This document shows, piece by piece, positions 26,905 through 33,965 of a DNA stretch of 64,000 bases. The DNA comes from Pectobacterium colocasium. Lineage in GTDB: Bacteria; Pseudomonadota; Gammaproteobacteria; Enterobacterales; Enterobacteriaceae. The position numbers and the translations under genes are program-made. The notes under the pieces are model-generated. The model had not been told where the DNA came from, did no database searches, and saw nothing but the letters and a program-made list of their open reading frames with translations. The stretch is taken from positions 4,848,019 through 4,912,018 of the forward strand of contig NZ_CP084032.1 in the NCBI RefSeq assembly GCF_020181655.1, in the 5' to 3' direction. Position 1 is the first letter of the stretch. Every line of letters begins with the position of its first letter.

Positions 26905-28365
26905 TTGAACTTCCAAGGTTTGCAAGCCAAGTACCGGCGGCTATTTGCCGAGAACGCAGCTTGGAAGTTGTTAAAGGCCGATAATGCGCCTTATATCCTT
27001 GCGTTCATTGCTGCTCTCTTTTTGGAAGACAGTGAAGTTCCCTACGGTCGAGCTAGAATCTTGTTGGATGTTGAGATTGAACGCAGCCGCGAGCTCGGCA
27101 TTTGGCCAACCGAGATGTCGGCAGCCACTTATCTGAATCAATGGATTAAGAATGGCTGGTTACGAGAAATGGATGATTTACTGACTAAAACTGACGCCAG
27201 TGAAATAGCACTTAGATTCTGTAAAGGGCTCGATGAACGCAATTCAGGCACAACAGCCTCACATTTGCGTATTGTTCAAGAAGCCGTTCGTGACTTAGCG
27301 GTTGCAATTAGTCCTAACGTTGATGAGAGAGTGACTTTGCTTGAAAGCAAAAAGGCAGAGATTCAACGCGAAATCGAGGCGCTTCAAGCGGGGATTGTCC
27401 CGGTTCTAAGTGAGTCCGATCAAAGAGAGCGAATCCGTCAGATCTATCAACTGGCTTCAGTGCTGACGGGTGATTTTCGTCGTGTAGAGGACGAAATTAG
27501 GACTCTAGATAGAGAACTCAGGATTCAGATTATAGAAGGTGACATCTCTCGTGGGGATGTGCTGCTCTCCGTAATGGAAAGAGAAGCATTGCTTTCTACT
27601 ACAGAAGCAGGAAGTGCGTTTGAAGGCTTTTTTCAGTTGCTGTGTGATCAAAACCGCTCAATGGAATTTCGTGAGCAGCTCCGTAGCATTCTTAGTAGAC
27701 CGGTCGGTCAGCAATTATCCAGTAGTCAGCATCAGTTTCTTAGTCACCTTATGCGTGAGCTGAGCCGCGAGAGCGAAAGGGTTTTTCGTGTCAGGCGGCG
27801 TACTGAAGAGAGCCTGCGTTCCTATATAGAAAGTGGCGCTGCTGCCGAAAATCAGGCGGTTGATAGATTGCTTTCAAAGCTAGAAAGACAAGCTGTATTG
27901 CTGCGTGATGAAGGCTTCGATTTGACAACGGAAACGGTACTTAGTCTCCCTGTTGGTCCTATAGAAATTAAATCCCCTGAATCGATCAAATTAAGAACCC
28001 CGGACGACAAGCTCGATACATCGGGTGTTGAAGAAAACGCCAATAGAAGAGAACCAAGTGCTCACGTGCTTGACTGTCTCGATGCTGTTCAAGTAAGACA
28101 GGTGGCTTATCAGGTCCTTAACACCCTGAGAAAACATGGCCCGATGTCGATTGCCAGGCTTGTAGACGAAACCCCGTTGACGTCAGGGCTGGAGGAACTG
28201 GTCGCGTATTTGCGAGTAGCAAAAGCGGTGAATGCGACCATGCTAGATGAAAAAGAGGATGTAATCGTAGTTGATAAGCAAGGCGTTAAGCTGAAAGCGT
28301 CTATACCTACCTATCTATTAACTGCCGAACTATTCCCAGAAGACATCGATGAACTTACCCTCTAG
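26905..28365 (+). CDS. jetA: JetA, Wadjet kleisin-like subunit (DUF3375)
   Basis: JetA is the MukF/kleisin-like subunit of type I Wadjet, which recognises and destroys small circular DNA such as plasmids. The N-terminal winged-helix region has the DUF3375 pattern (FAENAAWKLLKADNAPYILAFIAALF). Long charged helices fill the middle (about 150-370), and a C-terminal winged helix ends near PEDIDELTL. I prefer the TTG at 26905 (486 residues), preceded by a purine-rich GGGGGAAAAGGA, because DUF3375 proteins begin close to this point. The frame is open back to an ATG at 26824, which would add 27 atypical residues. Arg codons AGA and AGG are frequent, unlike the core genes. jetB follows after 20 nt. 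Confidence 0.88.
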   Translation: MNFQGLQAKYRRLFAENAAWKLLKADNAPYILAFIAALFLEDSEVPYGRARILLDVEIERSRELGIWPTEMSAATYLNQWIKNGWLREMDDLLTKTDASEIALRFCKGLDERNSGTTASHLRIVQEAVRDLAVAISPNVDERVTLLESKKAEIQREIEALQAGIVPVLSESDQRERIRQIYQLASVLTGDFRRVEDEIRTLDRELRIQIIEGDISRGDVLLSVMEREALLSTTEAGSAFEGFFQLLCDQNRSMEFREQLRSILSRPVGQQLSSSQHQFLSHLMRELSRESERVFRVRRRTEESLRSYIESGAAAENQAVDRLLSKLERQAVLLRDEGFDLTTETVLSLPVGPIEIKSPESIKLRTPDDKLDTSGVEENANRREPSAHVLDCLDAVQVRQVAYQVLNTLRKHGPMSIARLVDETPLTSGLEELVAYLRVAKAVNATMLDEKEDVIVVDKQGVKLKASIPTYLLTAELFPEDIDELTL

Positions 28366-28385
28366 CGGGTAGCAAAGGAAAGCCA

Positions 28386-32200: not shown

Positions 32201-32707
32201 GACCCGCGTTATCAGATGTCATTTTTTGCTGAAGAGATTGACTCGCATACGCTTGAAGTTCGAGATGTGCTTGAATCAAGCAGTGGAAAGTCTGGTGGTG
32301 AGAAAGAGTCATTTGCTGGCACTATCGTTGCGGCAAGCCTTGCTTATGTATTAACACCGGATGGGTACGACAGGCCAATTTACTGCACTGTGTTTCTGGA
32401 TGAGGCGTTTTCTAATACCGCAGAGGCTGTCAGTCGTCGAGTTATTAGAGTATTCAAGGAATTGCATATACACGTTAATTTGATTACGCCTTATAAAAAC
32501 CTCAACCTGGCAAGGGAGTCTGCACGATCGCTACTTATTGCTGAGCGTGACTCAGCACTCCATGAAAGTCATTTGTGCGAAGTCACATGGGAAGAAATAG
32601 ATCAGCGCATGGCTCATCAGAAGGAATCAGCCCAGTTAAAGGAAATAGCTGGTGAAATCGAGCTGAAAGAGTTGCGAAACACGGAAGTTGAGCCTAGTGA
32701 TGTCTGA
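29246..32707 (+). CDS. jetC: JetC, Wadjet SMC-like ATPase
   Basis: JetC is the MukB/SMC-like motor that extrudes DNA loops and so senses circle size. Over 1153 residues it shows an N-terminal head with Walker A GDNGAGKST (Lys68), long coiled-coil arms (about 270-490 and 650-1000) with a hinge-like middle around 500-640, and a C-terminal head with the ABC signature SGKSGGEKESFAG (Ser1016) and Walker B VFLDEAFSN (Asp1052, catalytic Glu1053). All ATPase motifs are intact. It overlaps jetB by 4 nt and jetD by 8 nt. Codon use is more AT-rich than in the surrounding core genes, in keeping with horizontal origin. Confidence 0.93.
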   Translation: MTADLFENLAKSSTNDIGDSIPSNDLFSQGQIRLSELSVFNWGSFHGLHTAAIDPEGTLVTGDNGAGKSTFIDGLMALLLPAGKAIFNVAAAQGDRSDRSLLSYMRGSFGSAHDGASTRVKSKREKGVVTGLRALYRADDDSCITLAVLFWTTSATNTLGDVKRVYLVAKRNLQLKELLDAFGEGNTRQLKQWLRDDPAITDCDSNFSDYQELYRKHLYMDNKNAPALLSRALGLKKIDDLTKLIRELVLEPSGVKEDAKNVVEEFADLVAIHEQLIDAKEQYSHLSRLPELADSIAKATKSLDSLLLEKSNLATYFGEALSILWAEKLEDIDKALDSISREINRVEIDESDAQSSVEKRHEEYLNLGGDKIESLKNEIKYIRGKLDDVIQVSSKYQVDCRRLSLNSEINEGVFFTNKSTAIENFAKIEEDTKQAQDHFGDVAAQLSEQQKNLNAIKGEILEIEARPDSNIDVRYQKLRDEMIESLDLPSEELVFIGELLDVKDDEKPWQGAIERALGGLKTTMLVPQKNYSMVTRWLNVRHTGLHVRAQIVSQVRTDQKSTGFTEFSERGYLRKLIWKDHAYRDWLKSHLHNFDLQCVSGTDELDATPFSMTREGLVHMERGRFEKKDQRKIDDRRSWSLGFSNKSRLALLNTDKGSAELRLSELDKTLSEAREALNKNAERANLWERLSSYTWEQVNAPYWQRRLESVQADLDELEKSGGNLEVARSRWDTAKEHLKKIQESKGQLLTKKGSLGNDKSHAQEQLDKYQQLAAAGMTDGVRQLLQSRVGEIRLDDAHRQANFEKAIDGELDKIRSSKSTAENVANGIMGSFRGKDKWQPITVDWPTGLEGLQYYLEHYTYIETEGLPELIDQFKERLNKHATQSLARIKTKLESEREDILERIDTINQVLKRTEFKQGSHLRLGSKREKYPHVLEFERKVRSALSQATSDDHEARFRLLSDVVDILDKASAPGTSTNEESKRLLDPRYQMSFFAEEIDSHTLEVRDVLESSSGKSGGEKESFAGTIVAASLAYVLTPDGYDRPIYCTVFLDEAFSNTAEAVSRRVIRVFKELHIHVNLITPYKNLNLARESARSLLIAERDSALHESHLCEVTWEEIDQRMAHQKESAQLKEIAGEIELKELRNTEVEPSDV

Positions 32708-33965
32708 AACAAATAGTCGACCACCATGGGGGCTTCTCCAGCAAGATGCCGTTGAAGTACTGAAGGCTAAGTATTGGAATAATAGAAAGACTTTAAAGAG
32801 TTTGCTTATTGGTAAGACCGAATTTCCGATACAGATATCTCTGAAGCCGCCAAAAGGAAATGCAGCCCTGAATAATATCATTCATTTTCAGGAGTTTGTG
32901 GATTCCTGGAAGTCGTTTTGCGAACAGGCTGCATATGAGTCCATACAAGTTAACGTCCGTTGGGATACCGTAACATTTAGATCGCTTTCTGAGCAGAAAG
33001 TGCCAACCTATTTGACAATACCTGATATCAGCTCGCTTGCTCAAATGCTTGGTGATGAGGCAGGGAAACAGCTTAGAAACTGGCAGTCCAGAATTGCAAA
33101 TATCTTTGATTCACTCTCCATAGAACTTGCTAAATGCACTGTCCACTCAATAAGGCCAACCTATGAGCGTGAATTGTTCTCCGTACTCATTTCGAATCTG
33201 GAAACCTTATCCGGTTTTAGTGATTCAGACATGCAATTGCTAGTTAAACTCATTCCTCAGTTTCACAAAGGCATGGGGAGTGGATGTTATTTAAGGGCTC
33301 TTCCTGTCATATTTGTCGATACCAAATTCATAGAGAAAAATCTGGGGTTTATTGAGTCAGTTACCGCAGCCATCATCGATTGCTCTGCAAAGGAAATGGG
33401 GCTTTTGAGTTGGCTGGATTGCAGAGATAAGCCAAAAGATTGGTTGTTAGTAAGGCCGTTGTGTAAAAACACTGCGGATTCCCTCGGAGGTCTGCCAGTG
33501 TTACGAATGTCGTCTGAAACATTATTAGGCTTCGAGTTGCCTGCTAAAAATATTCTTGTGATTGAGAATGAGCAGTCGTGCCTGTCTCTCGATAATATCC
33601 CTGACACGATCGCTGTGTCGGGAGGAGGCAAGAACGTTTCATGGATGAGGGCTGATTGGCTTGGCAATAAGCGAGTTGCCTATTGGGGTGATATTGATTC
33701 TGAAGGGCTTGCCATACTCAGTGATGTTCGCAGTAAGTTGAGTACGGTTATCCCGCTGATGATGGATTTGGAGACCGTTGAGGCCTACCGAGATAGGATG
33801 GTTGACGAGCCAGAATCGTTAGCTAGAGAGCCCGTTGCATTGACTGACCGGGAACTGATGCTCTTTAGAATGCTGCGCAATGGTGATTACGGCTGTACGC
33901 GTTTAGAACAAGAGCGTTTGCCGATGGATTTTGTCCACGAGAAAGTGCGGCAGTGGGCTGGCTAA
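32700..33965 (+). CDS. jetD: JetD, Wadjet nuclease subunit (DUF3322-DUF2220)
   Basis: JetD cuts the DNA that JetABC has captured; it is related to topoisomerase VI subunit A. The N-terminal DUF3322 region (about 1-190) is followed by a DUF2220 Toprim-type domain. The Toprim metal ligands look intact: Glu in ILVIENEQ (Glu289) and the Asp pair in YWGDIDSEGL (Asp331, Asp333). I chose the ATG at 32700 (MSETNSRPPW; 421 residues), which overlaps the jetC stop by 8 nt; an ATG four codons earlier is possible. The end of the operon is followed directly by an IS256-type fragment. Confidence 0.9.
   Translation: MSETNSRPPWGLLQQDAVEVLKAKYWNNRKTLKSLLIGKTEFPIQISLKPPKGNAALNNIIHFQEFVDSWKSFCEQAAYESIQVNVRWDTVTFRSLSEQKVPTYLTIPDISSLAQMLGDEAGKQLRNWQSRIANIFDSLSIELAKCTVHSIRPTYERELFSVLISNLETLSGFSDSDMQLLVKLIPQFHKGMGSGCYLRALPVIFVDTKFIEKNLGFIESVTAAIIDCSAKEMGLLSWLDCRDKPKDWLLVRPLCKNTADSLGGLPVLRMSSETLLGFELPAKNILVIENEQSCLSLDNIPDTIAVSGGGKNVSWMRADWLGNKRVAYWGDIDSEGLAILSDVRSKLSTVIPLMMDLETVEAYRDRMVDEPESLAREPVALTDRELMLFRMLRNGDYGCTRLEQERLPMDFVHEKVRQWAG

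What the first reader, a model, noticed from the sequence alone, without database searches (positions are those of the whole stretch)
26905..33965. Complete type I Wadjet (JetABCD) anti-plasmid operon
Four overlapping or closely spaced genes encode DUF3375, DUF4194, a 1153-residue SMC-like ATPase with intact Walker A, signature and Walker B, and a DUF3322-DUF2220 protein with the Toprim residues Glu289, Asp331 and Asp333. This is the textbook order of type I Wadjet, which cleaves small circular plasmids. All catalytic residues I can check are present, so it is likely active. It is a known system; what is of interest is its presence in a soft-rot pathogen and its location.
Basis: partly seen in the sequence, partly recalled or inferred. 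Interest (0 to 1): 0.72.

Follow-up and report, generated by a model that had tools for sequence, protein, structure and literature searches.

The report
Wadjet anti-plasmid operon beside Tn7 remnant
A soft-rot bacterium carries a complete, known type of plasmid-destroying gene set that lies beside the ruins of a Tn7-like jumping element, without the regulator gene that most of its closest relatives have, and the other genome of the genus found with this set also holds a small plasmid that it would be expected to destroy.

Summary
Window 26905-33965 (+) holds four uninterrupted genes that are type I Wadjet JetA-D by PADLOC, Pfam and solved-structure matches; JetD E289, D331, D333 and the JetC ATPase motifs are there. 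The system is known. Four points are added. (1) The closest relatives found are in other, largely marine gammaproteobacteria (85-87% DNA identity over a block equal to the operon); apart from G021, family members sampled reach 29% JetC at most. (2) It lies between glmS and pstS behind a Tn7-type right end whose TGT is exactly 25 nt after the glmS stop, between IS3 and IS256 remnants; a TnsC query found nothing in 25 genus genomes. (3) Six of seven near relatives carry an orthologous WYL-type gene and a promoter-like element before jetA; both are missing here. (4) The other carrier, Pectobacterium sp. A5351, is recorded with an 8,688-bp IncQ1 plasmid beside intact jet genes. Selection still acts on the genes taken together. 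'Likely active' is plausible, not shown.

The parts
26905..28365 (+). jetA (DUF3375, kleisin-type subunit), TTG start
   Evidence: PADLOC JetA1 1.2e-251, Pfam DUF3375; JetA chains in the PDB, E 5.7e-48 and 2.4e-44
28386..29249 (+). jetB (DUF4194, KITE-type subunit) with an N-terminal NSFFSMV stretch and a variable linker
   Evidence: PADLOC JetB1 4e-103, Pfam DUF4194; PDB JetB 2.8e-07; N terminus
29246..32707 (+). jetC (SMC-like ATPase, 1153 aa); Walker A 62, signature 1016, Walker B 1049
   Evidence: PADLOC JetC1 E=0; PDB JetC 8.4e-136; motifs
32700..33965 (+). jetD (DUF3322 + Toprim nuclease), E289/D331/D333
   Evidence: PADLOC JetD1 4.2e-161, Pfam JetD_C; aligned to JetD(E248A) of 8q72; the three residues invariant in 11 aligned JetD proteins; fold search 8b7f and 7til best
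26512..26583 (+). Tn7-type right-end remnant: terminal TGT 25 nt after the glmS stop, one of four end repeats (26520-26539), then the stretch that precedes tnsA in intact elements
   Evidence: 26520-26583 is 95.3% identical to the sequence that ends at the tnsA start in E. coli PK5074; alignment and offset; repeat counts
26605..26779 (-). IS3-family remnant (one end and part of the transposase gene)
   Evidence: blastn to annotated IS3 elements
26828..26856 (+). possible hybrid promoter TTTTCA-17-TATAGT across the junction (weak; 9 of 12)
   Evidence: 2 sites found on both strands, 0.9 expected by chance
26847..33968 (+). block shared at 85-87% DNA identity with L002-L005; its ends fit the operon
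34002..34149 (+). IS256-family remnant, joined to native pst-upstream sequence at CTGGCTGG
   Evidence: similar stretches, two of the eight listed annotated IS256 family transposase; junction
24474..26486 (+). glmS as the mechanical ORF (attTn7 host gene); named from its sequence and the E. coli gene order
34326..35366 (+). pstS, native right flank (name recalled from the sequence, no family search)

Best explanation
A type I Wadjet operon of a clade found mainly in other, largely marine gammaproteobacteria entered the Pectobacterium lineage at attTn7, most likely as cargo of a Tn7-like transposon. IS3- and IS256-associated deletions then removed the tns genes, the far end, the operon's divergent WYL (BrxR-like) regulator and its ancestral promoter, leaving the four jet genes fixed between glmS and pstS. 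As in characterised type I systems, JetABC should bind and reel in circular DNA and, when the loop is complete, activate JetD to cut it, so that small plasmids are lost. Shown here: gene identity, catalytic residues, attTn7 position, Tn7-end and IS remnants, absence of the regulator, purifying selection on the genes together. Inferred: that a transposon carried the operon, that the regulator was lost rather than never present, that transcription comes from a new promoter, and that plasmids are still restricted.
For: Identity and residues. Foreign origin: nearest JetD 79-86% in a Pseudomonadales MAG, Spongiibacter, Alishewanella and Shewanella; shared DNA block 26847-33968; operon GC 0.45, glmS 0.54; 2 of 25 genus genomes have it, a third has a distant 29% JetC with a stop. 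Tn7 end; the outer TGT and one of the four PK5074 repeats are kept; of the 21 genus loci where the glmS end was located only G000 and G021 show it. TnsC query: 0 of 25 genus genomes, same query 13 of 197 genomes of the order. Regulator: orthologue upstream of jetA in 6 of 7 relatives with JetA of at least 82% identity and upstream DNA; no match in genomes G000 and G021 while the same search finds it at 83% in G295. Selection: dN/dS 0.20, 0.40, 0.15, 0.27 for A-D; 274 substitutions, 111 amino-acid changes against about 186 expected, 0 stops against about 12.
Against: No second copy of the Tn7 end repeat lies anywhere in the 64-kb window, and the native sequence that follows the glmS terminator in other species is not found in the gap, so a single transposon spanning the operon is not proven. 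TnsA-E of PK5074 find nothing in the stretches held around 22 relatives, while the control L078 rings for TnsA-D; one relative (L002) has a serine recombinase gene upstream instead. The TnsA family searches had no ringing control. The other carrier holds a small plasmid. Taken one by one, jetA, jetB and jetD would show no stop by chance in 5, 20 and 7% of draws, and JetB shows little constraint (20 changes, 23 expected).
Confidence: 0.6

Rival explanations
1. A silent or decaying relic: the genes are intact but, without the ancestral promoter and regulator, are expressed too weakly to restrict plasmids; this is why an 8.7-kb plasmid lives in A5351.
For: Regulator and 27-bp promoter-like element missing; only a weak promoter match at the junction; IncQ1 plasmid in G021.
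Against: Both copies share the truncated upstream junction, so the 274 substitutions came after it, yet there is no stop, no gap and fewer amino-acid changes than under neutrality.
Confidence: 0.2
2. The system is active but IncQ1 (RSF1010-type) plasmids escape it, for example through their replication or relaxosome state, copy number or an obstacle on the DNA.
For: Intact catalytic residues in G021 beside a complete IncQ1 plasmid. In Cupriavidus necator deletion of a type III Wadjet did not change the stability of an RSF1010-replicon plasmid (PMC12645576, passages).
Against: One strain; the plasmid could be recent or a sequencing contaminant. The C. necator system is of another type, and its deletion changed nothing else that was tested either. 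Nicked and relaxed circles are cut in vitro, so topology alone would not protect (PMC10586767, passages).
Confidence: 0.25
3. The operon arrived independently of the Tn7-like element and was brought into an old Tn7 remnant by IS elements or recombination.
For: IS remnants on both sides, no second end, and no tns genes beside the relatives' operons.
Against: The two remnants are of different IS families, so they are not a simple composite transposon; Wadjet is documented cargo of Tn7-like elements (34 for JetD in a table, PMC8649781, one passage).
Confidence: 0.35
4. A MukBEF/MksBEF-like chromosome-organising complex, not a defence system.
For: Weak MksE match of the JetB protein, below the Pfam cut-off (26.6 against 27 bits).
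Against: A complete JetD nuclease with the Toprim acids is part of the operon and all four best profiles are Wadjet type I.
Confidence: 0.03

Closest known systems
Type I Wadjet of E. coli (PDB 8as8, 8bfn, 8q72; strain GF4-3, recalled) and P. aeruginosa (8dk1-8dk3, 7til; strain PA14, recalled)
   Same: Four subunits, JetC ATPase motifs, JetD E/DxD acids, JetD fold
   Different: Another clade: JetC bit scores of 456-458 equal those of relatives that are 28-31% identical; JetB has NSFFSMV where E. coli-like relatives have FFDK
jetABCD of a Pseudomonadales MAG, Spongiibacter pelagi, Alishewanella aestuarii and Shewanella sp. NIFS-20-20 (L002-L005)
   Same: 79-94% identical proteins, 85-87% identical DNA over the operon
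   Different: L002-L004 have a divergent WYL gene and a promoter-like element in front of jetA (one base off in L003); L005 has a CD-NTase-like and a SAVED gene there. The window has none of these
Tn7 at glmS in E. coli FDAARGOS_536 and the Tn7-like element in PK5074
   Same: Insertion point 25 nt after the glmS stop, TGT end, stretch before tnsA
   Different: About 61 bp with three of four end repeats, the tns genes and any second end are missing
BrxR-associated defence loci (PMC9122601, one passage)
   Same: Wadjet is named among the systems reported next to BrxR homologues; the relatives here have a WYL gene (BrxR-like is my reading)
   Different: The window and G021 lack the gene

Membership tests
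Type I Wadjet | jetA-jetB-jetC-jetD order with DUF3375, DUF4194, SMC-like ATPase, DUF3322-Toprim | tested here: met
Type I Wadjet | best profile is a type I model for every subunit | tested here: met
   JetA1/B1/C1/D1 best; JetD3 only 1.3e-4 and 2.5e-4
Type I Wadjet | JetC Walker A, signature, Walker B | tested here: met
Type I Wadjet | JetD Toprim acidic residues | tested here: met
   E289 aligns with position 248 of JetD(E248A); E289, D331 and D333 invariant in 11 sequences
Type I Wadjet | JetD fold | tested here: met
   8b7f and 7til best (6.9e-20, 1.9e-19), 8q72 Toprim part rmsd 2.6; but whole-chain superposition is loose (rmsd 14-17, TM 0.38-0.44; model pTM 0.53)
Type I Wadjet | JetB N-terminal IFDR motif that contacts JetD (PMC10586767, passage) | tested here: inconclusive
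   NSFFSMV at the N terminus instead of an FFDK/FFDR form
Type I Wadjet | cuts small circular DNA and lowers plasmid uptake | not testable with these tools
   needs bench work
Type I Wadjet | natural carriers lack small plasmids (in a Bacillota survey 2 of 1,442 genomes, both called questionable, had all four genes and plasmids below 16 kb: PMC12287153, passages) | tested here: inconclusive
   Of six JetC-positive genomes with at most three contigs G002 is broken; of the other five, G021 (8,688 bp) and G262 (8,462 and 4,245 bp) carry small plasmids, G000 has one contig, G104 and G663 have second contigs of 53,106 and 82,731 bp
Tn7-like transposon | right end with TGT 25 nt after the glmS stop | tested here: met
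Tn7-like transposon | full set of right-end repeats (TnsB sites, recalled) | tested here: not met
   one in the window, four in PK5074
Tn7-like transposon | tns transposition genes | tested here: not met
   TnsC query 0 of 25 genus genomes, control 13 of 197 in the order; TnsA-E of PK5074 not in the window
Tn7-like transposon | second end and target-site duplication | tested here: not met
   no second repeat copy in 64 kb; the target word recurs only inside jet genes; native post-glmS sequence not in the gap. Filed as a remnant, not as a transposon
Wadjet locus with WYL regulator | divergent WYL gene before jetA | tested here: not met
   absent in G000 and G021; present in 6 of 7 near relatives

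The most novel reading that the evidence does not exclude
Freed from its BrxR-like repressor and rewired at attTn7, this Wadjet clade is in constant use in Pectobacterium, and IncQ1-type plasmids escape it by a mechanism of their own, so that the A5351 pair (intact Wadjet plus RSF1010-type plasmid) is a natural case of Wadjet evasion.
Probability: 0.15. Interest if true: 0.65.

Novelty: new member of a known kind. Interest (0 to 1): 0.38.

Why it matters
The operon itself is ordinary. Its use is as a natural test case: how plasmids coexist with Wadjet is open (PMC10586767 says that they almost certainly can evade it and that coexistence is seen; passages), and a strain with unbroken, selected jet genes and a well-studied type of 8.7-kb IncQ1 plasmid makes it directly testable in vitro. 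It may also show one route by which a mobile defence operon becomes a fixed chromosomal gene set: loss of transposition genes, ends and regulator while the structural genes stay under selection.

Tried and rejected
Rejected: MukBEF/MksBEF (JetD present); type II or III Wadjet (JetD3 hits weak); composite transposon (the flanking IS remnants belong to different families); a close plasmid source (best plasmid JetC 52.9%, P. aeruginosa; 15 of 72,556 records match at all).

Led nowhere: NCBIfam has no model that fits. DNA near the JetC of L097 is in 7 of 5,426 E. coli genomes, too few and too far for a co-residence test. Two patterns were first typed with wrong spacing and missed even their known copies: the promoter-like one (corrected in 88, 89) and the Tn7 repeat (corrected in 108, 109). 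The corrected promoter-like pattern matched 5 relatives plus L132, which is the L007 genome again. TnsA family searches had no ringing control and are not counted as evidence. JetC head modelling was not done. Paper searches: Wadjet with Pectobacterium (3 papers, listing only) and A5351 with Pectobacterium (1 paper, listing only) showed nothing on this operon; Wadjet with RSF1010 gave 4 papers and with IncQ 2, of which I read passages of PMC12645576 and PMC8630534. Passages of PMC10121019 and PMC11096173 were read and not used. Only open-licence PMC papers are held.

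Full report
OBSERVATION. PADLOC gives type I models as best match for each (JetA1 1.2e-251, JetB1 4e-103, JetC1 0, JetD1 4.2e-161); Pfam gives DUF3375, DUF4194, AAA_29 with SbcC_Walker_B, and DUF3322 with JetD_C. Solved JetA, JetB, JetC and JetD chains are matched by sequence. The mutated residue of JetD(E248A) in 8q72 aligns with E289 of the window's JetD; D331 and D333 lie in YWGDIDSEG, and all three are invariant across 11 aligned JetD proteins. An AlphaFold model of JetD (mean pLDDT 80.3, pTM 0.53) finds C. glutamicum MksG and P. 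aeruginosa JetD first (6.9e-20 and 1.9e-19), with a loose whole-chain fit (rmsd 14-17), then the Toprim part of 8q72 (3.5e-3, rmsd 2.6) and topoisomerase VI (0.035, 0.057). JetC was not modelled.

WHO HAS IT. In 25 genomes of the genus, JetC is found in G000 (the window), in G021 (96%) and, far apart, in G002 (29%, one TAG, JetA in pieces). G021 contains an 8,688-bp contig whose first 8,000 bases (the part I searched) are 100% identical to p_A5351 of Pectobacterium sp. A5351, a circular record of the same length, which names the genus and very probably the strain. In 394 genomes of the order, JetC at E up to 1e-100 occurs in 19, the window included; next are 83% (G075) and 79% (G295), whose contig lengths equal those of the Shewanella (L005) and Pleionea (L007) records; the three other members of the window's family that matched are at 28-29%. 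In 369 genomes of the class it occurs in 19, the window included, next 74%. By JetD the closest are a Pseudomonadales MAG, Spongiibacter, Alishewanella and Shewanella (86, 83, 80, 79%). DNA similarity with these four is 85-87% and spans window 26847-33968 at most, which is the operon with 58 bp of leader. The operon is poorer in GC (0.45) than glmS (0.54). A horizontal origin outside the family is the simplest reading.

THE SITE. pstS is found in 25 of 25 genus genomes, and in 21 of 25 the glmS end was located in the stretch fetched (20 kb or less); the gap ranges from 462 to 18,692 bp with varying contents, so this is a variable locus. In the window the 25 nt after the glmS stop match the nearest species, then the sequence changes to TGTCGGGTGACAAAATATTTGTAAAATG. 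In E. coli FDAARGOS_536 and PK5074 the Tn7 or Tn7-like element begins with TGT at the same 25-nt offset, and window 26520-26583 is 95.3% identical to the stretch that ends at the tnsA start in PK5074. About 61 bp are missing; PK5074 has four copies of the end repeat, the window one. Next come an IS3 remnant, the operon, and an IS256-type remnant fused at CTGGCTGG to the native sequence upstream of pstS. G021 shows the same junctions at 96% identity over 7.4 kb, with several indels in the right-hand remnant, so the two inherit one event. No second repeat copy lies in the window, and native post-glmS sequence is not found in the gap. A TnsC query finds nothing in 25 genus genomes and rings in 13 of 197 genomes of the order. 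So this is a Tn7-type remnant, not a transposon. That it carried the operon in is inference: Wadjet is documented Tn7-like cargo (34 for JetD in a table of PMC8649781, one passage), but none of the 22 relatives' stretches examined holds a tnsA-E relative (control L078 rings for TnsA-D).

THE MISSING REGULATOR. In 6 of the 7 relatives with JetA of at least 82% and upstream DNA (L002, L003, L004, L006, L007, L008) an orthologous divergent gene lies upstream of jetA; Pfam finds a WYL domain in the three that I scanned (L002-L004). The seventh (L005) has a more distant WYL-like gene (below the Pfam cut-off), then a CD-NTase-like and a SAVED gene. L127 (JetA 80%) could not be judged: its contig starts 139 bp before jetA. 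In all, 8 of 30 scanned loci gave a hit, the eighth (L129) in two pieces. TTGACATNATCAAAANGATGATGATAA lies between the gene and jetA exactly in 5 of these 6 and with one difference in L003. Neither is in the window; the gene search also finds nothing in G021 and rings at 83% in G295. BrxR homologues next to Wadjet are known (PMC9122601, one passage); that the gene here is a BrxR-type repressor is my reading. The hybrid promoter at 26828-26856 is close to chance expectation.

IS IT IN USE? Between G000 and G021 the four genes differ by 274 substitutions and no gaps. Neutral draws with the same substitution types (300 per gene) give about 12 internal stops and 186 amino-acid changes in sum; 0 and 111 are seen. 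The stop test is decisive for jetC (no draw of 300 without a stop) and weak for jetA, jetB and jetD alone (5, 20, 7%). dN/dS is 0.20, 0.40, 0.15 and 0.27 for A-D. Because the upstream junction is shared, this selection acted after the regulator was gone. Against a simple 'active' reading stands the IncQ1 plasmid of A5351. Published work reports nicked and relaxed circles to be cut and plasmids below about 50-100 kb to be restricted (PMC10586767, passages), and a Bacillota survey found 2 of 1,442 genomes with all four genes and plasmids below 16 kb, both called questionable (PMC12287153, abstract and passages). Among the six JetC-positive genomes here with at most three contigs, G002 has broken genes; of the other five, G021 and G262 (its two small contigs match the circular plasmids of Oceanimonas sp. 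GK1) carry plasmids under 16 kb, G104 and G663 have second contigs of 53 and 83 kb, G000 has one contig. Five genomes are too few for a rate, but small plasmids beside unbroken type I jet genes are not confined to one record.

VERDICT. A new member of a known system in a telling place, with a partly reconstructed history. Membership in type I Wadjet is firm by the features testable here, except the JetB N-terminal motif, which has a different form. Activity is likely but unproven.

Noticed in passing
window 26487-34325 and L050-L073: The glmS-pstS gap is a variable locus in the genus (462 to 18,692 bp where measured); 10 of 25 hold all or part of a multi-gene cluster with ketosynthase-like genes (aryl-polyene-like; recalled, not tested), 13 of 25 a protein of about 475 aa.
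   Followed up: partly
window 20537-22771 (-): 744-aa protein with a weak Pel9A-like beta-helix match, between the atp genes and glmU (names of neighbours from E. coli gene order).
   Followed up: no
window 41604-42269 (+): 221-aa ORF with an Abi_2 match just below the Pfam cut-off (25.3 against 25.6 bits), near a BenE transporter.
   Followed up: no
L074 (G002): Another genus member has a different, E. coli-like Wadjet at another place with JetA in pieces and JetC broken by a stop.
   Followed up: partly
G262, matching Oceanimonas sp. GK1 (L131, L145, L146): Unbroken type I jet genes beside two circular plasmids of 8,462 and 4,245 bp.
   Followed up: partly
L005:1-3852: The Shewanella relative has a WYL-like gene, a CD-NTase-like gene and a SAVED-2TM gene directly before its jet operon.
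   Followed up: partly
L006-L008 against the window: Subunits diverge unevenly: JetA 82-84% and JetC 77-84% but JetB 62-66% and JetD 54-60%.
   Followed up: no
L006:6933-9897: JetC of the Endonucleobacter MAG is split into two ORFs with about 145 residues missing; assembly error not excluded.
   Followed up: no
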